The notes beneath the pieces were generated by a model. It ran no database searches, was not told where the DNA came from, and saw only the letters and a list, made by a program, of their open reading frames with translations. The position numbers and the translations under genes were made by a program. A stretch of DNA of 25,777 bases from a virus: the IMG/VR virus record IMGVR_UViG_3300020207_000142, positions 1 to 25,777 of that record. One strand, written 5' to 3'. Every line of letters begins with the position of its first letter. Position 1 is the stretch's first letter. Positions 4,782 through 24,795 of the stretch are shown piece after piece.

Positions 4782-6374
4782 TTAGAACATATGTCCCACA
4801 TCTTCGTACCACGGTTTTCCATTTACAAGGTTCTCTTCTTGTTCAACGGCCTCTAAACCATCATCAACAAAACCGAATGGTAAGACATCAGCTTCAATTT
4901 CGTCCATTCTTTGTTTAAACATCATTTCTTTTAACGATACTTCCGTTATTTGTTCAAATGAATTAGACACAGCAAAATAACCAAATAAAACTAAATTCAT
5001 CATCAAGTCATCATGGTTACCTTCTGATGCCTCATAGGATTGACCACGAGCCACAAAGGTAGACATTTCTAAAATAGTCTGTGTATCTTTTACTATAAGT
5101 TTATTGGCTTCTAATATATCTTTAATTGCAGAACAACCGATACGTTTTACCTTACGGTTCATTTCAATACCAAGCCGATCTGCTTTAATTAAAGATTCCA
5201 TATGTAAATGTTCGTATTCTAAATCGTGATACAAACCATTTGTAACTAATCCGCCCTGATCATTTGCCTCAACAATTACATAAGCTTCATTATAGACATT
5301 CGCAAACTTATAAATAACATTTGGGAAGAGTATTGGAGATATAGTATTATTGCGATAAACAGCAACCTGTTCAAAAGGTCTTGTGCTAATATCGATCACA
5401 TTAAATGTAGAGTAATCCTGTCCTCTTCCCTTCGATACATCTACAGTCATTACATATTGATGGTCTTTTTCTGGTTCTTTGTATATTAAAGTACACCCAC
5501 CATCTAAAACTCTTGCAGGTTCTCCAGCTCTTTGTTCTAATAAACAATCAGCACTAATTAAAGTATCTCCAGTTCCAAAGAATGTATTGCCAAATTCTTG
5601 ATCAAACTGTAATTGAGAAGTATTTGAAATAGTAGCATTCTTCCATTCCTCATCTCTTCCGGGAACATCCCACCAATCAACCCTAAATGGTTTGAATTGA
5701 TTTGTTCCTTGCATTGCTCCTTCCCAAATAGTATGGAACATATTACCAATACCATTTGCAGTTGAAGTGATAATTACTTTTGTATCTTTACCTGATGAGA
5801 TAACTGGATATGTTGATGTATAAAATTCAGCAGCTCTTTCAACAAATGCAAATTCGTCCAAATAAAGCAGATTCACAGACATACCACGAATAGAAGATCC
5901 AGAGGTAGCTGCAGCAATAATACGAGAGTTGTTACTAAATTCTATTGACCCTTTGTTTAAAGCTCTACATCCAGGTTGTAAGAAAAATGGTAGATTCTCC
6001 AACATTAAAGTAATACGAGCAAGCATCTCTCTTGCAGTAGCGCCTTTGTTGGCTAGAACTGCAATAGTTTTTTCTGGATGGAAACAAGCAAACCAAAGTA
6101 AATAAGCAACAGAAGAAATAGATTTACCAGATTGTCGACATGCCAAAACTATAGAAAACCTAGTATCATTAAAATGATGGAACATTTTTTCTTGATATGG
6201 ATATAGCTTAAAAGGAACCAGACCACGATCAAGTGAAATGACTTTACAATAGTTAATTGCAAAGTATGTAGGATCTTTCATGCATTTAGCATATTCTTGA
6301 AATTCGTCTTTTGTAAATCCGTGAGTAACACCATCTCTTTTTACGTTGATGTTACCATTATAATTGTCACTCAT
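4782..6374 (-). CDS. gp17: Terminase large subunit (packaging ATPase/nuclease), gp17-like
   Basis: The 530-residue motor pumps DNA through the portal and cuts concatemers. Numbering from the ATG at 6374: Walker A is CRQSGKS (79-85); Walker B with the catalytic acid is LLYLDE (about 169-174); the coupling motif is STAN (204-207). The RNase H-like nuclease domain shows MTVDVSKG (Asp312), IVEAND (Glu369) and NHDDLM (Asp455/Asp456), matching the T4 gp17 acidic triad. The chosen ATG gives an 8-base overlap with the gp16 end (ATGAGTGA) but has only AGAAAG right before it. An in-frame TTG at 6398 lies 9 bases after a GAGG and would add eight residues, so the exact start is open. The function is certain. 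Confidence 0.98.
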   Translation of the reverse strand: MSDNYNGNINVKRDGVTHGFTKDEFQEYAKCMKDPTYFAINYCKVISLDRGLVPFKLYPYQEKMFHHFNDTRFSIVLACRQSGKSISSVAYLLWFACFHPEKTIAVLANKGATAREMLARITLMLENLPFFLQPGCRALNKGSIEFSNNSRIIAAATSGSSIRGMSVNLLYLDEFAFVERAAEFYTSTYPVISSGKDTKVIITSTANGIGNMFHTIWEGAMQGTNQFKPFRVDWWDVPGRDEEWKNATISNTSQLQFDQEFGNTFFGTGDTLISADCLLEQRAGEPARVLDGGCTLIYKEPEKDHQYVMTVDVSKGRGQDYSTFNVIDISTRPFEQVAVYRNNTISPILFPNVIYKFANVYNEAYVIVEANDQGGLVTNGLYHDLEYEHLHMESLIKADRLGIEMNRKVKRIGCSAIKDILEANKLIVKDTQTILEMSTFVARGQSYEASEGNHDDLMMNLVLFGYFAVSNSFEQITEVSLKEMMFKQRMDEIEADVLPFGFVDDGLEAVEQEENLVNGKPWYEDVGHMF

Positions 6375-6726
6375 CTTTCTGGTAGTCGCTAATATCAACT
6401 ATTTTATCCTCATCATTATCTAAAAGCATACGCTGTAAATCACTTGTGGATCCAATGAATACATTATTTGTAGTTTGATTTGCTAATTCTTTTGGCTGGT
6501 CAGTTTTATCAAAATCTTTTTTCTTCTTATGAAGATCTAACAGATTGCCATTAATATCAGCAACATGTTTCATCATATTAGAAAAGACTTCAAAAGCTCT
6601 AGGATGTTCAGTTGCTCTAGCAACATCCATCATTTCATCAAGAGCTTCAGAACCTTTTACTAAAAGATCGTGATAGATTTGTCTTGAGTATTCAAAATCA
6701 TTATCTGCATTATTATCTTTACTCAT
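6367..6726 (-). CDS. gp16: Terminase small subunit, gp16-like
   Basis: A 119-residue protein, shorter than T4 gp16 (164). The shared core is the helical segment with PRAFEVFSNMMKHVADINGN and LLDLHKKKKDF, which corresponds to the T4 PRHMEVFATLM...LHKDMKD coiled coil, then NNVFIGSTSDLQRML, which corresponds to NATVFMGSPTELM. Family function: rings of small terminase recognise phage DNA, stimulate the large-subunit ATPase and regulate its nuclease. Its end overlaps the gp17 start by 8 bases, consistent with translational coupling of the two terminase subunits. The ribosome site is AGGTAGG, about seven bases before the ATG. Confidence 0.93.
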   Translation of the reverse strand: MSKDNNADNDFEYSRQIYHDLLVKGSEALDEMMDVARATEHPRAFEVFSNMMKHVADINGNLLDLHKKKKDFDKTDQPKELANQTTNNVFIGSTSDLQRMLLDNDEDKIVDISDYQKDE

Positions 6727-6736
6727 TTTGACCTAC

Positions 6737-7624
6737 CTAGGCACCAGTGCCTCCGTTGAGAGTTCTAACTACAAGAGCTAGTCTATCTAATGCTGAATCT
6801 ACTGTTGTTGGTGGTGTTCCATTCCATAGATCGGCTGAATCAGTCGAATATCCTAATGTAGCTGTTGAAATAAGACTATTTACATTTGCTGAATCTAAAA
6901 TTGTTGGAGTACCAGTTAAAGAACTATATGCAAAGTCTTGTGCAGTTTCACGTAATTGTACGTAGTCGCTATCAACTATAGTTGTTACAAATGCGCTGTC
7001 TCTATAAATGTCTGCTTGACGTGCTTGAATATAATCACTATCAATAATATCTGTCACAAAGGCACTATCTCTTTGATTATCAGTATCATCTAGAATTTTA
7101 ATCCCACCTACCATACCTGCATGCACAGTACATTGATATACCAATGACGTTGGTGCATTCATCGGTACAGTCATTGAAACTGTTCCATTGCCACCATTAT
7201 TTGTCACACCGCTTGAATACGCAGAACCGCCTGAATCAACTCTAATTTCTAATGGATGCCCCGCTGGAACATTTGTAAATTCGTATGTTTTACCACGAGT
7301 AAAATATAAAGTAGGATTTGTAGCAGAATCTGGAAAACCATCACCAGTAAAAGTATAATTTGATCCATCTCCGGAAACACTAAATATTGTTTCTGCAGGG
7401 CGGTTTGTCGAAATATAACTTGCAGTAACAATACCTGTTACGAATGAACTATCTCTTTGAGTGTCATTTTGTCTTGCTTGGACATAAGTATCATCAACAA
7501 CGCTTTCAATAATAGATTGAACATTTGCTGAATCTAAATCTGCATCTAAAAGAGTTGTAAAGTTAGCATCAAGTTCGGTATGGGTTAGCTCCGAACCTTT
7601 TGCACTTCTTAATGTAATTGCCAT
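6737..7624 (-). CDS. Small fibre-like virion protein with an inserted cupredoxin (type 1 copper) domain
   Basis: A 295-residue protein between gp15 and gp16. It begins MAITLRSAKGSELTHTELDANF, a common N-terminus of phage fibre proteins. Residues about 42-75 and 181-230 carry repeats of the type DSDYIQARQ...RDSAFVT. Between them, about 80-178, is a cupredoxin-like domain: TLYFTRGKTYEFTNVPAGHPLEIR supplies His123, and YQCTVHAGMVGGIKI supplies Cys165, His168 and Met171. The C-x2-H-x2-M spacing matches the amicyanin copper loop, and the His-to-Cys distance (42) fits the fold. The C-terminus (SADLWNGTPPTTVDSALDRLALVV) resembles fibre ends. I infer a minor neck or tail fibre. Copper binding is predicted from the ligands alone; a structural decoration use of the fold is the alternative. 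AGGAG precedes the ATG. Confidence 0.85.
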   Translation of the reverse strand: MAITLRSAKGSELTHTELDANFTTLLDADLDSANVQSIIESVVDDTYVQARQNDTQRDSSFVTGIVTASYISTNRPAETIFSVSGDGSNYTFTGDGFPDSATNPTLYFTRGKTYEFTNVPAGHPLEIRVDSGGSAYSSGVTNNGGNGTVSMTVPMNAPTSLVYQCTVHAGMVGGIKILDDTDNQRDSAFVTDIIDSDYIQARQADIYRDSAFVTTIVDSDYVQLRETAQDFAYSSLTGTPTILDSANVNSLISTATLGYSTDSADLWNGTPPTTVDSALDRLALVVRTLNGGTGA

Positions 7625-7633
7625 TTCTTACTC

Positions 7634-8449
7634 CTACTCAACGTATCCTGATGCAACATAACCAGATAATACATATGGTACTACTGGATACGTAAAATCA
7701 AATTCTTCATTAAATCCGTAATCATCCTCAGCTGAGGCATCTTCTGGATTCGGTGAAATTGTAATTCTACCAATTTGTTGATCTTCTGGCGTTCTTATAT
7801 CGTATATATTATTTATAGATCTTGTAATTACACCACCTTCACTAATTGGTCCATAAAAGTTAACTCTCATATCAAAAGTAAGGGTGTAAATAATAGTTCT
7901 TCTTTGTTCCAATGAACCTTCATAATCGTCTTGAAAATCAACACCTGTTAAGGCAATTGGAACATCTTCTTTTACATTTGGATAATCACCAAATGGTTTT
8001 AATGTTAATGTATATTGTGGATTAAAATATGGTAATATTTGTTCCACAATTTGTAGAGCATCGTCTTGATTCTTTGCATATATGCTTAGTTGAAATCCAA
8101 CATTGTATGGCACAAATGGATAAAACTTATTCCTTAAATTTGCTGTGGATCCACCTTGTGTAAAGTTATTTGTTTTCTGTAATTGTCTAGATGCATCATA
8201 TTGGATTGAAATAATTTCAAAAGACATACGTGGCAACTTTAAAGCTACTTTAGTATTAGCATCTAAGTCTGGATTCTCTCTAATTCTTTCTAAAAACTTT
8301 CTTTGAGGCGCATAAGACAATGGAACTTTAACTTGAGAAATTACTTGGTTAGAAGCATTTGTTCTCAACACATAAAGATTATTAAATAGCGTGCCAAAAA
8401 TAGCTACACTTTTACGTAATCTTTGATGATAAAAATGAGTACCAAACAT
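7634..8449 (-). CDS. gp15: Tail sheath stabiliser / tail terminator, gp15-like
   Basis: A 271-residue protein, essentially the T4 gp15 length (272). It caps the finished tail tube and sheath and forms the joint to the head. Corresponding segments to T4 gp15 include the start MFGTHFYHQRLRKSVAIFGTLFNN, the VPLSYAPQRKFLERI motif, LPRMSFEIISIQYD, YNVGFQLSIYAKNQDDALQI and VEQILPYFNPQYTLTL. The C-terminus is acidic. The ATG overlaps the gp14 stop by one base (TAATG), so it is translated as part of the neck operon. An exact TATAAATA falls inside this gene (7810-7817), but it lies in coding sequence and I do not rely on it. Confidence 0.95.
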   Translation of the reverse strand: MFGTHFYHQRLRKSVAIFGTLFNNLYVLRTNASNQVISQVKVPLSYAPQRKFLERIRENPDLDANTKVALKLPRMSFEIISIQYDASRQLQKTNNFTQGGSTANLRNKFYPFVPYNVGFQLSIYAKNQDDALQIVEQILPYFNPQYTLTLKPFGDYPNVKEDVPIALTGVDFQDDYEGSLEQRRTIIYTLTFDMRVNFYGPISEGGVITRSINNIYDIRTPEDQQIGRITISPNPEDASAEDDYGFNEEFDFTYPVVPYVLSGYVASGYVE

Positions 8450-19569: not shown

Positions 19570-19577
19570 TATTTATA
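19570..19577 (-). promoter_or_regulatory. T4-type late promoter box TATAAATA ahead of the 118-aa protein and giant fibre
   Basis: Exact TATAAATA on the minus strand, overlapping the last codons of the preceding glycosyltransferase gene by a few bases. It separates the enzyme cassette from the late fibre genes. The predicted start is near 19564. Confidence 0.72.
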
Positions 19578-20280
19578 TAAAATATTTCTCCATTTTTATG
19601 TAAACAGAAGAATCAGCCTGGGAAACTACACAAAAGGTTTTACTAGGATCGTATATGTATCCATCTGATTCGATATACTTTGGATCGTAAGATTCTAGAC
19701 CTTTGTTGCGAAAGTAATAATCTTTTGAAAAGTCTATCCAATTAAATTTATCAAAATATAATTCAGACAAAAACCTGTCAAGACCATAATAAAAGACTAT
19801 ATTAAAATCTAAATCATCAAAGAACTTATTATAAATGTCTTTATGATTACAATAAAAACCAAGTATTGAAGAATTAATTTTTGCTTCTGGTATTGTTAGT
19901 ATATTTTCTTCGTTTCCATCATACGGATAGTAAACACCATAGTGTCTTCCATTGATTGTTAATATTTTTTCTTGTTTTATCTGATTTATAATGTGGTCAA
20001 AATTATTTTGAATTATAACGTCCAAATCAAAATACAAAACAGGTCCAGATAAATTTAAATTAAATAAGCATATCTTCCACCAATAAGATTCTAAATCTAA
20101 AGATGTATCAAGTGGAATTATGTTAATGCCTTCAATGTCTGTATCAGAAAGGCAATAAAAATAAAATGGTAAAGAAATGTTTTTCTCTACCATCCTATAA
20201 AGTCTTTTTACATGTTCACTATTATATTTAGTTCCGTATTTTACACAGACTATGTTAACATGGGTTTTCAAGATCTTCAA
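19573..20280 (-). CDS. Putative GT-A type glycosyltransferase (235 aa)
   Basis: A 235-residue protein with the layout of a small GT8-like nucleotide-sugar transferase: an N-terminal beta strand NIVCVKYGTKYNSEHVKRLY, FYFYCLSDTD, then YWWKICLFNLNLSGPVLYFD reaching the DLDVII motif (Asp85-x-Asp87), the metal-binding DxD. Later it has SSILGFYCN and DRFLSELYF. No C-terminal membrane segment is seen. The start is not ATG. The reading frame opens with TTG at 20280, only three bases after GAGG; a second TTG at 20271 has a 12-base spacing. The conserved strand begins at residue 8, so one of these two is likely. It overlaps the oxygenase end by up to 26 bases. The sugar donor and acceptor are unknown. 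It is the last gene of the cassette. Confidence 0.8.
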   Translation of the reverse strand: MKILKTHVNIVCVKYGTKYNSEHVKRLYRMVEKNISLPFYFYCLSDTDIEGINIIPLDTSLDLESYWWKICLFNLNLSGPVLYFDLDVIIQNNFDHIINQIKQEKILTINGRHYGVYYPYDGNEENILTIPEAKINSSILGFYCNHKDIYNKFFDDLDFNIVFYYGLDRFLSELYFDKFNWIDFSKDYYFRNKGLESYDPKYIESDGYIYDPSKTFCVVSQADSSVYIKMEKYFI

Positions 20281-20929
20281 TTACCTCTTGCCAAAAATTG
20301 TCTGCTTCAGCAAATACAAATGCAACTGTAATACGGTAACAATCTGTATATGCAGCATGATAACATAATTTATCTGGAGAATCATAAGGTCCGAAATAAG
20401 TCATTTTTGCTTGCCATCCAGGTTTATCTTGAACACGGATTCTTTCTTTTTTCTCTATATCCCAATAATCAAACCAGCCATCACCTGTTTCTGAATATGT
20501 AATAATGATATTATATCCAGGAGCATTTGCATTGTTGTGCCAAGAAATAAATCCTCCTGGAGGATAGCATGCATTCAATGCATTGTTTTTGCAAGATAAA
20601 AATTCAATTAATTTAGTATTTAAAACTCTAGATGCATCTTTAATTATCTTTCCACGCGTGCTATCATCTTCATGCTTTAACCCAGAGAATCCCTTTAGCA
20701 CTCTTGGAAAACCATCATGTTCTCTTCCCATTCCTATAACATTATGCATGTATTCATCTGAAATCCAATCTTCAGCTTTGTCATTCTCATGGCGAATAGG
20801 AATTTCTTTTGCAATCAAAGGAGGATCGTCTGGTTTTTCTCTATGAAGAAGAACATCTTTATATTCATTTAAAATATCAATAAAATCTTGATTTTGTAAA
20901 TCAATATCTCTGACAGGCACTTGTGACAT
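20255..20929 (-). CDS. 2-oxoglutarate/Fe(II)-dependent oxygenase (prolyl-hydroxylase-like fold)
   Basis: A 224-residue protein from the ATG at 20929, chosen because AAAGGA sits about eight bases upstream and the ATG overlaps the preceding stop (TAATG). A longer in-frame start at 20965 lies inside the upstream gene. The double-stranded beta-helix core is visible: NACYPPGGFISWHNNANAPG, YNIIITYSETGDGWFDYWD, and MTYFGPYDSPDKLCYHAAYT followed by DCYRITVAFVF. Candidate ligands are His131 (WHNN) and His191 (CYHAA), with Arg199 in the expected spacing for 2-oxoglutarate. The usual Asp of HxD is Asn133 here. Such oxygenases are frequent in marine T4-like phages near fibre genes. The substrate is unknown: fibre protein, nucleotide or surface sugar are all possible. 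Confidence 0.85.
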   Translation of the reverse strand: MSQVPVRDIDLQNQDFIDILNEYKDVLLHREKPDDPPLIAKEIPIRHENDKAEDWISDEYMHNVIGMGREHDGFPRVLKGFSGLKHEDDSTRGKIIKDASRVLNTKLIEFLSCKNNALNACYPPGGFISWHNNANAPGYNIIITYSETGDGWFDYWDIEKKERIRVQDKPGWQAKMTYFGPYDSPDKLCYHAAYTDCYRITVAFVFAEADNFWQEVIEDLENPC

Positions 20930-21768
20930 TATAAAAATCCTTTTTCGCCATATTTGTCCATCCAACTTGAATAATGTATTACAACTGGATGCGGGTTAGT
21001 TTTCCAATAATCTCTTTTAGGATCTACAATGTGGCAATTATGAGTACCATCTTTATTAAATCCAAATGATGTAAAGTAGTTCCATCTATAGTTTTCATCA
21101 AAGAATTTCCACTTTAATGATTTATATTTTGGTGAATGATAAATTAACCACCATAATGTTAGTTGATCCCATTGTCTAAAGTTTCCCTTTTGAATATACT
21201 TAAATTCTATAGGATCCCATTGACCTACTCTTTGTTTTAAAAATAGTTCATACCAATCATACATAAATTCTTTAACTAATGGATTACGCATATCATATAG
21301 AGCTACACCACCACAATGAGCTAAATGATCTGGTACTCCGGTCCATCCATCATCATATAAATTAGGACCCCAATTCCATTCGGCAAAATGCCTAGCGCCT
21401 TCTTTAGTCAAATTGACATAAGCCATATCATGACCATCTAAAAGATCAAAAACATTAGATATATCGTCATGAACAATTTCAATGTCAGCATCTAGATAAA
21501 AAGTTAAATCATATGGAGAATTAGCCATTCCCCACATTTTTTCTCTATTTGTATTAGAAGGTGTAGCAATTACTTTTTCAAATGAAGAAAAATACTGCTG
21601 ACATTTTGGGTCATCAATAAATTGTTGTTCAGTGAATAACGTTATATTAGCATCTTCATCGTGATCTAAAAGAGATTCTGCTAAATTTTGTGCACCAATA
21701 AGAAACTGAGTCCGTTTTGTAGCTACAGTAACATAGCCTTTAGTTGGACTCTCCGGTTTCTTGTTCAT
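20929..21768 (-). CDS. Putative glycosyltransferase with DAD motif (279 aa)
   Basis: A 279-residue GT-A fold candidate. It starts GYVTVATKRTQFLIGAQNLAESL, a nucleotide-sugar binding strand/helix. It has NREKMWGMANSPYDLTFYLD, then the DxD motif at Asp93-Ala94-Asp95 (YLDADIEI), HCGGVALYDMRNP as the probable acceptor-side loop, and NPHPVVIHYSSW near the end, whose His265 fits the C-terminal metal ligand of retaining GT8 enzymes. GGAG about seven bases before the ATG at 21768 supports the start, which overlaps the upstream ORF by 29 bases. It has no signal peptide or transmembrane segment, so it acts in the infected cell cytoplasm. It is part of the overlapping four-gene cassette. Donor and acceptor are not predictable. 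Confidence 0.85.
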   Translation of the reverse strand: MNKKPESPTKGYVTVATKRTQFLIGAQNLAESLLDHDEDANITLFTEQQFIDDPKCQQYFSSFEKVIATPSNTNREKMWGMANSPYDLTFYLDADIEIVHDDISNVFDLLDGHDMAYVNLTKEGARHFAEWNWGPNLYDDGWTGVPDHLAHCGGVALYDMRNPLVKEFMYDWYELFLKQRVGQWDPIEFKYIQKGNFRQWDQLTLWWLIYHSPKYKSLKWKFFDENYRWNYFTSFGFNKDGTHNCHIVDPKRDYWKTNPHPVVIHYSSWMDKYGEKGFL

Positions 21769-22284: not shown

Positions 22285-24795
22285 TTATGCAATTCTTACA
22301 TATAAAGTATAAGTTTCCTCAGTTCCACTGGTGGCATCAATCGTTTCCCCTTCAAAATTACCTACAAAGTTTCCAATATAATCCGTTAAATATTCAGCAT
22401 TATATACGTTTTCATAATCTGCAATGTAATCAGTGGAATAAGGAAAATTAAAAGCTCTTGTATATGTTCCAACATACTGAGTATTATATGTTGAAGCATA
22501 ATCTATAGTGTAATCTTTTGTATAGTTTATGCTGGTGTAGTCTGCAGCAAATGCAGGTCCAGTAAAATCTCCAAGATAATCTGTAGCGTAAAGAGGGGAT
22601 GCAAAATTTCCAGTATACGTAGGAGCCACATAATTTGTTATATAACTTCCAGATATATAGTTCGTTTGATAATTACCAGTATAATCTAGAGTATATACTC
22701 TAAGATAGGTATTACTATATCCTGCTACGTATGATACGCCGGGAGGACCTTGAGGAACAGAATCTGTAGATTGGAAATTACGAACGTAATTTCGAATATA
22801 GTTTGGTACATAATTCCCTTGGTATACAATATTATATTGAGGATCAAGAACATAGTTGCTTGTGTACAACCTCGAATATCTCGTGGTATAAATTAAATTT
22901 CTTGAGTAAATATTTGTGAGTATAAATTGTCTGGCATAAAAACTATCTTGCTGATAAGTTGTTGGATTAATAAATCCTATGTAACCGGTGTTACGTAGAT
23001 ATTGAGACACTGTATAGTTTCTGGCGTAATACGCGGCCCCTAATCTTGTATAAGTATTTAAGTTTCCGTAATTCCTGCCATAATATGACAAGGATGGGCC
23101 AAGATATGTTGGGCCAGAGTAATATCTTAGATAATATTGTGAGCCCCCACCTAAATAACTAGATGACGATCCCGAAGAGGATCCTTGATAATATCTAACT
23201 GGTCCACTTGATCTTACGTAGTAAGCAGAAGGAACATTTCTTGTATAATTGCGACCGTAGTATCCTGCAAAGTAGGTATTATTTGCGACATTTGCTGTGT
23301 AATTTCCAAGATATGTTGTTCCTCCTGCACCAAGATACTGTTGAGGAGTGGCGGAGAGGCCTGTATAGGCTCTAGCATAATATCTAGACGGCCCTAGATA
23401 ATATACAAGCCTAATATAGTTAGGAGTATAAAGTCTACTATAGAAATTGGTTACGGTGTACTGGCCAGTATAAACAAGATTTCTTGTATAGTTTACTAAT
23501 CGAGTATAAACACGGTCATACGTCCCAGCAAAATTAGAAGTATATGAAATCGCACCAGTATAGTTAACAGGTCTATTAATTACAAAAGCATCACCAGCAT
23601 AATTATTTACAAACCCTCTAGTATAAGTTCCTGTATAGTTTGTATCGTACCTTGTTGTATAATTTGCGCTAAAACCTATAAGAGTATAATTTGTTGTATA
23701 GTCTTGAGTATAGTTACCAATATATTCTACAGCATATTGACCTGTAAATTGTCTTTCATAATTACCAACATAGTTACCGGTGTATATTCTAATATAATTT
23801 GGAACATAATTATTTACATAATTACCTAAATATTGATTTGCATATGCTCTAGCATATAAAGGACCAGAATATGTCGTTGTATATGGTGTCGAATCAAAAG
23901 TACCAGTATAAGTATTTGTATAGGCTTTTACATATGGTAAAGTATAGACATTAGTATATCCACGTGTATAATTTTGTTGGAACGTAGATGTACTATCTCG
24001 AGTAAATATTTGTTGACTTGTAGTTTGCTTTGTATCAGTGGCAGAACCTTTTGATACCCAAGTCCCAGGGTCTGTTGGAGCACCTTGTGCAGAAGTTCTT
24101 AGTTGATATGTACCAATTTTAGAAGCACCAATACGAGTCTTTGCTCTTTGACCAAATGAATATTGAATTTGGCGATCAGTCATCGCTCTGAGTTTTATAC
24201 CAGAACCACCAGCACTATCTTCAACAAACATTGGTCTCACAGTAGTTGGAGCTGTATAATTATCTCTGCGGTAAATGTTATAACCAATAGACGTACCATC
24301 AGTTCTTGTATCTGTAAAGACTGATGATAGCCAAACTGAATAATCTACACCTGGAGATGAAGAAGCTAATCTAAATACTCCAGGATAATCATTTGTAAAT
24401 ATTGTTGCAAGATAACGGTCAACTGCTTCATTTAGATCTACATCTGGCATCATTTTAAAACCAGTTTCAGAAGATCCTGCTGAATCTACCCACATTAAAG
24501 GAGAATAAACATCTGAATCTGTTTCAGGCGCAGTGCCTTGACTTTGATATACATTTGTAGTTGTGCTACCTGATGTAATGGATGTTGATGGATGCGTTCC
24601 TACTGGTTCATTAAAAAATGTATCTACAAAAGAACCAATATTAGTGTGGGACGCATTAGTTGTAATACTACCAGTACCATTCGGTCCTGAGGCTGCTAAA
24701 TGTTTTCCAATCTGATATGCAATATAGTTTTCTTCAGAAGTTGTAAACTCCTGAATATTACCACCGGCGTCTTTTATCTTGAGTGGAGTTGCCAT
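22285..24795 (-). CDS. Tyrosine-repeat virion protein (836 aa)
   Basis: A non-repetitive N-terminal domain (1-265) starts MATPLKIKDAGGNIQEFTTS and contains VDSAGSSETGFKMMPDVDLN, EAVDRYLATIFTNDYPGVF and KLRAMTDRQIQYSFGQRAKT, which looks like a virion-binding domain. From about 276 to 815 the sequence is dominated by Tyr at spacing four or close to it, with units such as YTGN, YVGN, YTRN and YARA. In residues 322-370 an aromatic residue occurs at every fourth position for 13 turns. A Ser/Gly-rich insert (about 538-552) and a collagen-like QGPPG (682-686) interrupt the array. The last 20 residues are a non-repeat cap. There is no signal peptide. I infer an adhesive or structural fibre; the function is unknown. 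AAGGATAAT precedes the ATG, and a late promoter lies at 24829-24836. Confidence 0.87.
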   Translation of the reverse strand: MATPLKIKDAGGNIQEFTTSEENYIAYQIGKHLAASGPNGTGSITTNASHTNIGSFVDTFFNEPVGTHPSTSITSGSTTTNVYQSQGTAPETDSDVYSPLMWVDSAGSSETGFKMMPDVDLNEAVDRYLATIFTNDYPGVFRLASSSPGVDYSVWLSSVFTDTRTDGTSIGYNIYRRDNYTAPTTVRPMFVEDSAGGSGIKLRAMTDRQIQYSFGQRAKTRIGASKIGTYQLRTSAQGAPTDPGTWVSKGSATDTKQTTSQQIFTRDSTSTFQQNYTRGYTNVYTLPYVKAYTNTYTGTFDSTPYTTTYSGPLYARAYANQYLGNYVNNYVPNYIRIYTGNYVGNYERQFTGQYAVEYIGNYTQDYTTNYTLIGFSANYTTRYDTNYTGTYTRGFVNNYAGDAFVINRPVNYTGAISYTSNFAGTYDRVYTRLVNYTRNLVYTGQYTVTNFYSRLYTPNYIRLVYYLGPSRYYARAYTGLSATPQQYLGAGGTTYLGNYTANVANNTYFAGYYGRNYTRNVPSAYYVRSSGPVRYYQGSSSGSSSSYLGGGSQYYLRYYSGPTYLGPSLSYYGRNYGNLNTYTRLGAAYYARNYTVSQYLRNTGYIGFINPTTYQQDSFYARQFILTNIYSRNLIYTTRYSRLYTSNYVLDPQYNIVYQGNYVPNYIRNYVRNFQSTDSVPQGPPGVSYVAGYSNTYLRVYTLDYTGNYQTNYISGSYITNYVAPTYTGNFASPLYATDYLGDFTGPAFAADYTSINYTKDYTIDYASTYNTQYVGTYTRAFNFPYSTDYIADYENVYNAEYLTDYIGNFVGNFEGETIDATSGTEETYTLYVRIA
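22351..23970 (-). repeat. Tyr-rich tetrapeptide-like repeat array
   Basis: This DNA encodes residues 276-815 of the 836-aa protein. In the most regular stretch, 23686-23832, an aromatic codon recurs every 12 bases, giving YxxN-type units; elsewhere spacings of four, five and three alternate. The DNA copies are not identical, so selection appears to act on the protein pattern. Confidence 0.85.

What the first reader, a model, noticed from the sequence alone, without database searches (positions are those of the whole stretch)
7091..7387. Amicyanin-like cupredoxin domain inserted in a phage fibre-like protein
Between gp15 and gp16 a 295-aa protein carries a complete apparent type 1 copper site: His123 in AGHPLEIR and Cys165, His168, Met171 in YQCTVHAGMVGG. 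The C-x2-H-x2-M spacing equals that of amicyanin, and the His-to-Cys gap of 42 is right for the fold. The domain interrupts an array of DSDYIQARQ/RDSAFVT repeats present on both sides, so it looks inserted into a pre-existing fibre. A copper protein on a virion neck or fibre could sense or bind copper, anchor to a host electron carrier or envelope protein, or use the fold purely for stability. I recall similar domains in marine phage proteins but cannot verify how widespread or characterised they are.
Basis: partly seen in the sequence, partly recalled or inferred. Interest (0 to 1): 0.78.

Follow-up and report, generated by a model that had tools for sequence, protein, structure and literature searches.

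The report
Copper-protein domain on marine phage fibres
A fibre protein of this marine T4-like virus carries a small domain built like the blue copper proteins of bacteria and plants; hundreds of other marine phages carry relatives on their tail-fibre and baseplate proteins with the four predicted copper-binding residues almost never lost, so many ocean viruses probably display bound copper, which nobody in the literature I could search has described.

Summary
Window 6737-7624 (-) encodes a 295-aa protein between gp15 and the terminase genes. Residues ~76-180 form a cupredoxin domain set, in register, into a 23-aa fibre repeat array. AlphaFold2 models it at pLDDT 94, and the top Foldseek matches in the PDB are cupredoxins or proteins containing them.

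It usually forms the C-terminal domain of gp9-type baseplate/fibre proteins. In 242 non-redundant copies, 237 keep all four type 1 copper ligands (H123, C165, H168, M171). The other five each lost both Cys and the second His, and none lost a single ligand. Ligand codons vary synonymously. This all-or-none pattern is strong sequence evidence for a selected metal site; copper itself was not measured.

It is cupredoxin-like but not a demonstrated amicyanin. Exported Flavobacterium lipoproteins carry relatives. Best explanation: a modular copper-binding beta-sandwich on the tail, most likely a metal-rigidified host-contact module. The copper site is well supported; the contact role is inference. 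Ten searches of the open-access library found no description of it.

The parts
6737..7624 (-). 295-aa fibre-like structural protein carrying the domain
   Evidence: residues 21-179 match PHROG 677 (baseplate wedge tail fibre connector) E 2.7e-31
7085..7399 (-). cupredoxin module, residues ~76-180 (about 105 aa)
   Evidence: AlphaFold2 pLDDT 94, pTM 0.86; Foldseek PDB best matches are cupredoxins or cupredoxin-containing proteins; repeat register gives 105 aa
7256..7258 (-). His123, predicted Cu ligand 1
   Evidence: His in 113 of 114 clusters
7130..7132 (-). Cys165, predicted Cu ligand 2
   Evidence: 112 of 114 clusters
7121..7123 (-). His168, predicted Cu ligand 3
   Evidence: 112 of 114 clusters
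7112..7114 (-). Met171, predicted axial Cu ligand
   Evidence: 113 of 114 clusters
7403..7495 (-). N-side fibre repeat (TYVQARQ..RDSSFVT)
6929..7078 (-). C-side fibre repeats (RDSAFVT..DSDYIQARQ, 23-aa period)
7634..8449 (-). upstream neighbour: tail sheath stabiliser gp15
   Evidence: Pfam T4-gp15_tss 1.4e-68
6367..6726 (-). downstream neighbour: terminase small subunit
   Evidence: Pfam DNA_Packaging 1.7e-6, PHROG 445 1.6e-38

Best explanation
The gene encodes a virion fibre protein carrying a type-1-copper-binding cupredoxin module that marine tailed phages shuffle between fibre and baseplate proteins. SHOWN by computation: the cupredoxin fold, the ligand quartet, its all-or-none conservation, placement on gp9-like baseplate/fibre proteins, and occurrence of close copies in otherwise different host proteins. 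INFERRED: the domain folds without metal in the host cytoplasm and takes up one copper ion per chain in the periplasm, lysate or seawater, where cupredoxins bind copper very tightly. The metal-locked beta-sandwich then serves as a rigid surface module exposed on the fibre or baseplate and contacts the host envelope, or a neighbouring fibre, during adsorption. Sub-probabilities: binds copper in type 1 geometry 0.8; main role is host or fibre contact with copper as rigidifier 0.45.
For: Fold: pLDDT 94; top PDB matches are cupredoxins or cupredoxin-containing proteins (NirK, AcoP, amicyanin, plastocyanin, rusticyanin, pseudoazurin, oxidase subunit II), probability 0.99-1.00 in the 50 rows listed; profile search finds NirK, plastocyanin and amicyanin at 1.6e-5 to 6e-4, with all four ligands aligned to those of plastocyanin. 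Selection on the site: 237 of 242 copies HCHM, five exceptions all lacking both Cys and His2, no single loss; ligands among the six most conserved columns; synonymous variation at ligand codons. Virion context: the domain is the C-terminus of gp9 'baseplate wedge tail fibre connector', whose N-terminus matches solved T4 gp10 (1.8e-11) and gp9 (5e-9); 140 of 197 viral copies are at the extreme C-terminus; P-SSM2 proximal tail fibre domain TM 0.92. Modularity: an 80%-identical copy in a 968-aa protein and relatives in 1307- and 1441-aa proteins share an RPAE-[ST]-IF entry; the closest isolate, C48C1, lacks the gene, with gp15 overlapping TerS.
Against: No metal was measured. T4-like virions assemble in the cytoplasm, where copper is scarce, so loading must occur later. 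Copies that lost the site (L254, L238, L453) keep the domain, so the module has a use without copper. Residues next to His168 are small (S/A/G) with no conserved hydrophobic patch, so no obvious partner-docking face is seen. The host-contact role has no direct evidence. The window gene itself is a metagenomic fragment without proteomics.
Confidence: 0.6

Rival explanations
1. Purely structural module: the cupredoxin sandwich is a stable decoration or fibre-capping domain, and the metal, if bound, only stabilises it; nothing is sensed or contacted.
For: Copies that lost the ligands keep the fold and position (L254, L238, L453). The domain is mostly a C-terminal cap. No conserved hydrophobic docking patch.
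Against: Near-absolute, all-or-none retention of the quartet in 237 of 242 copies is more than a merely dispensable stabiliser would be expected to show.
Confidence: 0.25
2. Virion-borne copper does chemistry: it scavenges scarce copper, or protects the particle by dismutating superoxide or quenching photo-oxidants in sunlit seawater.
For: Isolate phages with the domain are all marine cyanophage or marine virus records; T4-like phages of enteric hosts, which dominate TerL matches, show none. An iron analogue has been proposed for fibre HxH motifs (PMC11705849).
Against: Type 1 sites are coordinatively saturated and poor catalysts (established knowledge); a few tens of copper ions at most per virion is little copper. 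Marine restriction may equally reflect host phylogeny.
Confidence: 0.08
3. The Cys/His/Met site binds another metal such as zinc, or Cys165 acts as a lone redox residue, so it is not a copper site.
For: Only sequence and a predicted fold are available. The residue after His123 is an invariant Pro, where cupredoxins usually have Asn (my knowledge), so the second shell differs.
Against: The quartet is that of type 1 copper proteins, aligns with plastocyanin ligands and is lost together, not Cys alone.
Confidence: 0.07
4. Auxiliary metabolic plastocyanin: the phage supplies an electron carrier to host photosynthesis.
For: Some cyanophages carry petE (PMC2984593).
Against: The domain sits inside fibre/baseplate proteins without an evident signal peptide, in structural operons, and is not a stand-alone soluble carrier.
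Confidence: 0.02

Closest known systems
Amicyanin (TIGR02657; PDB 1aac)
   Same: Cupredoxin fold; C-x2-H-x2-M ligand loop; single His ligand in the N-terminal half
   Different: Free periplasmic electron carrier paired with methylamine dehydrogenase; residue after the first His is Asn (my knowledge), here an invariant Pro; the window domain scores no hit to the model
Plastocyanin / Pfam Copper-bind (PF00127)
   Same: All four ligands align; some family members hit PF00127
   Different: C-x2-H-x4-M loop; soluble photosynthetic carrier with a signal or transit peptide, not a virion domain
T4 gp9 / cyanophage gp9 baseplate wedge tail-fibre connector (PHROG 677)
   Same: In cultured cyanomyoviruses the domain is usually the C-terminal domain of gp9-type proteins; window residues 21-179 align to the C-terminal part of PHROG 677
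   Different: The window protein lacks the gp9 N-terminal domain and lies in a different genomic slot, between gp15 and TerS
HxH iron-binding phage fibres (T4 gp37; alterophage R22Y, PMC11705849)
   Same: Predicted metal sites on phage tail fibres in the sea
   Different: Iron in His-pair octahedral sites along a trimeric needle; here a single-domain type 1 copper site
Flavobacterium CHRD-domain lipoproteins with a C-terminal cupredoxin (L165, L169, L172)
   Same: Same domain family, C-terminal position, exported protein
   Different: Cellular, lipobox-anchored, combined with CHRD domains

Membership tests
Cupredoxin superfamily | Greek-key beta-sandwich cupredoxin fold | tested here: met
   pLDDT 94 model; top PDB matches are cupredoxins or cupredoxin-containing proteins, probability 0.99-1.00 in the 50 rows listed, though TM (query-normalised) only 0.39-0.60
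Cupredoxin superfamily | Sequence-profile similarity to solved cupredoxins | tested here: met
   Family profile hits NirK 1.6e-5, plastocyanin 1e-4, amicyanin 6e-4; weak, and the single window sequence alone gets none
Type 1 (blue) copper protein | His, Cys, His, Met ligand set conserved in the family | tested here: met
   237 of 242 copies; ligands align to those of plastocyanin
Type 1 (blue) copper protein | Ligand side chains converge in space | not testable with these tools
   Model coordinates are not released; inferred from fold and alignment
Type 1 (blue) copper protein | Binds Cu with ~600 nm band and type 1 EPR signal | not testable with these tools
   Needs expressed protein
Amicyanin | C-x2-H-x2-M loop | tested here: met
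   411 of 414 domain matches in which the motif was found, redundant copies included
Amicyanin | Scores above the TIGR02657 model | tested here: not met
   No hit for the window domain; 7 of 20 relatives only weakly, best 3.1e-4
Amicyanin | Signal peptide and linkage to methylamine dehydrogenase | tested here: not met
   Embedded in a fibre protein amid tail/packaging genes; N-terminus MAITLRSAKGSELTHTELDANF has no signal peptide by inspection
gp9 baseplate wedge connector (PHROG 677) | gp9/gp10-type N-terminal domain | tested here: not met
   The window protein matches only PHROG positions 250-410; gp9 relatives do have it

The most novel reading that the evidence does not exclude
A large share of marine tailed phages, T4-like cyanophages above all, display copper-loaded cupredoxin domains on their baseplates and fibres and need the metal for host recognition or tail triggering: a copper counterpart of the proposed iron 'Trojan horse' fibres, and the first blue copper proteins known in virions.
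Probability: 0.3. Interest if true: 0.85.

Novelty: new variant of a known kind. Interest (0 to 1): 0.64.

Why it matters
If the site holds copper, marine phage particles are copper proteins. That bears on how tails recognise hosts in seawater, on whether viruses are part of the ocean's organic copper-ligand pool, and on how a redox-protein fold was recruited for adhesion. The prediction can be tested directly with cultured cyanophages (metal content of purified virions, spectroscopy of gp9 C-terminal domains). The all-or-none loss of the site in a few lineages offers natural holo/apo pairs.

Tried and rejected
Chance motif: rejected by family conservation. Pfam, NCBIfam and PDB searches with the single window sequence gave nothing useful; only family profiles reach known cupredoxins. 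The amicyanin profile alignment offsets the first His by two residues, whereas the plastocyanin alignment matches it exactly; I take the latter because the H-[NP]-hydrophobic-x-hydrophobic spacing agrees. A plasmid search found no relatives. A full-length gp9 model was poor except for the cupredoxin domain (pLDDT ~59 overall, ~84-94 over the domain), so how the domain sits on the trimer is unknown. Virion proteomics of S-CREM2 (PMC10665884) lists baseplate wedge proteins as detected, but I could not tie one to this domain. Ten paper searches found no description of a cupredoxin in phage fibres; that library holds open-access papers only.

Full report
OBSERVATION. The 295-aa ORF (6737-7624, minus strand) lies nine to ten bases from gp15 on one side and the terminase small subunit on the other, so it sits in the neck/packaging operon of a T4-like phage. 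The window is a whole IMG/VR record of 25,777 bases. His123, Cys165, His168 and Met171 are as described. The flanking repeats have a 23-aa period. N- and C-side copies align at offsets of 128, 151 and 174 residues, i.e. 105 + 23n, so a module of about 105 residues sits between repeat units without disturbing their register. Repeat fibres of the same kind without the domain exist (L007-L010).

FOLD. With 46 related domains from viral contigs, AlphaFold2 gives mean pLDDT 94 and pTM 0.86, an eight-stranded all-beta domain. The top PDB matches are cupredoxins or proteins containing them: three-domain nitrite reductase, AcoP, amicyanin, plastocyanin, rusticyanin, pseudoazurin, multicopper oxidases, oxidase subunit II. 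Probability is 0.99-1.00 in the 50 rows listed, but TM (query-normalised) is only 0.39-0.60, so this is a distant branch. By sequence profile the nearest solved proteins are NirK (1.6e-5), plastocyanin (1e-4) and amicyanin (6e-4); the plastocyanin alignment puts His, Cys, His and Met over its copper ligands.

FAMILY. tblastn with the domain finds 321 records in the phage collection, all Synechococcus or Prochlorococcus phages, cyanophages or marine viruses. The terminase of the same phage matches 2,558 records, mainly enteric T4-like phages; none of those enteric phages shows the domain. In cultured cyanomyoviruses the domain is usually the C-terminus of gp9, the baseplate wedge tail-fibre connector, whose N-terminus is related to solved T4 gp10 and gp9. 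Of 197 viral copies in complete ORFs, 140 are at the extreme C-terminus, so the window's internal position is a minority arrangement.

SELECTION ON THE SITE. Over 242 non-redundant copies, 237 have H, C, H, M. The five exceptions (DSNM, NSNM, HSSV, NSNY, NSIA) have each lost Cys and the second His; no copy has lost one ligand only. Two exceptions (L254, L238) are close relatives of each other in phages related to this one, and L254 occupies the same gp15-TerS interval. Two others are the second and third tandem copies in one protein whose first copy is intact (L453). Over 114 clusters the four ligands, Pro124 and Tyr163 are the most conserved columns (98-100%; next 94.7%), while ligand codons vary synonymously. 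Caveats: the search profile was built from ligand-bearing members, although ligandless copies still score about 118 bits, so the bias is small; and some retrieval patterns include the Cys while others do not.

MODULARITY AND ORIGIN. A copy 80% identical to the window domain sits in a 968-aa protein, and related copies in 1307- and 1441-aa proteins, with different surroundings but a shared entry sequence RPAE-[ST]-IF. The closest isolate, phage C48C1 (terminase 70% identical), has gp15 overlapping TerS with no gene between, so the whole gene is an addition in this lineage or a loss in the other. Cellular relatives include lipobox-bearing Flavobacterium proteins with CHRD domains and a C-terminal cupredoxin, a short apparently exported Emticicia protein, and collagen-like repeat proteins of Bacteroidetes and a marine euryarchaeote. 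The family is therefore an extracellular module that phages share with bacteria; direction of transfer was not tested.

MECHANISM. Shown: fold, ligand set, selection, virion-protein context, occurrence of close copies in different proteins. Inferred: that copper is bound, when it is loaded, and what it does. I favour a metal-rigidified surface module used in host or fibre contact (about 0.45), over a purely structural cap (0.25) and copper chemistry (0.08). Ligandless lineages show the module keeps some use without metal, and the small residues around His168 argue against a classical electron-transfer docking patch.

KNOWN OR NEW. The fold and ligand set are known; a type 1 copper module as a common element of phage baseplates and fibres was not found in any held paper. 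The nearest published idea is iron in HxH fibres (PMC11705849). Automatic domain databases may already flag some members as cupredoxin-like; that was not checked.

Noticed in passing
L254 (5806-6282), L238, L259; L453 copies 2 and 3: Cupredoxin copies that lost the whole metal site (Cys to Ser, His to Asn/Asp/Ser) but keep fold and position; L453 has one intact and two degenerate copies in one protein.
   Followed up: yes
L070, L069, L072, L077 (829-aa/497-aa ORF downstream of gp9): The gene after gp9 in cyanomyoviruses (T4-GC 399) carries divergent relatives of the same domain, several with HP and C-x2-H-x2-M.
   Followed up: partly
L165, L169, L172: Flavobacterium lipoproteins combine two to four CHRD domains with a C-terminal cupredoxin of the phage type.
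   Followed up: partly
BFVD hits A0A481Z6J5, A0A481YWX9 and others: Pithovirus- and marseillevirus-like 'beta-sandwich proteins' match the model by fold.
   Followed up: no
window 22285-24795 (-): 836-aa protein of dense YTxxYxGNY-type tyrosine repeats, no PHROG or Pfam match.
   Followed up: no
window 19573-20280, 20255-20965 and 20929-21768 (-): By eye, two glycosyltransferase-like (DxD-type) proteins flank a possible 2-oxoglutarate oxygenase-like protein inside the fibre gene region; no Pfam match at 0.01.
   Followed up: no
gp15-TerS interval: window 6727-7633, L254, L262: The slot between gp15 and the terminase small subunit is empty in C48C1 and L205, holds one fibre gene here and about 6 kb of sequence including the domain gene in L254, so it may be an insertion hotspot.
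   Followed up: partly
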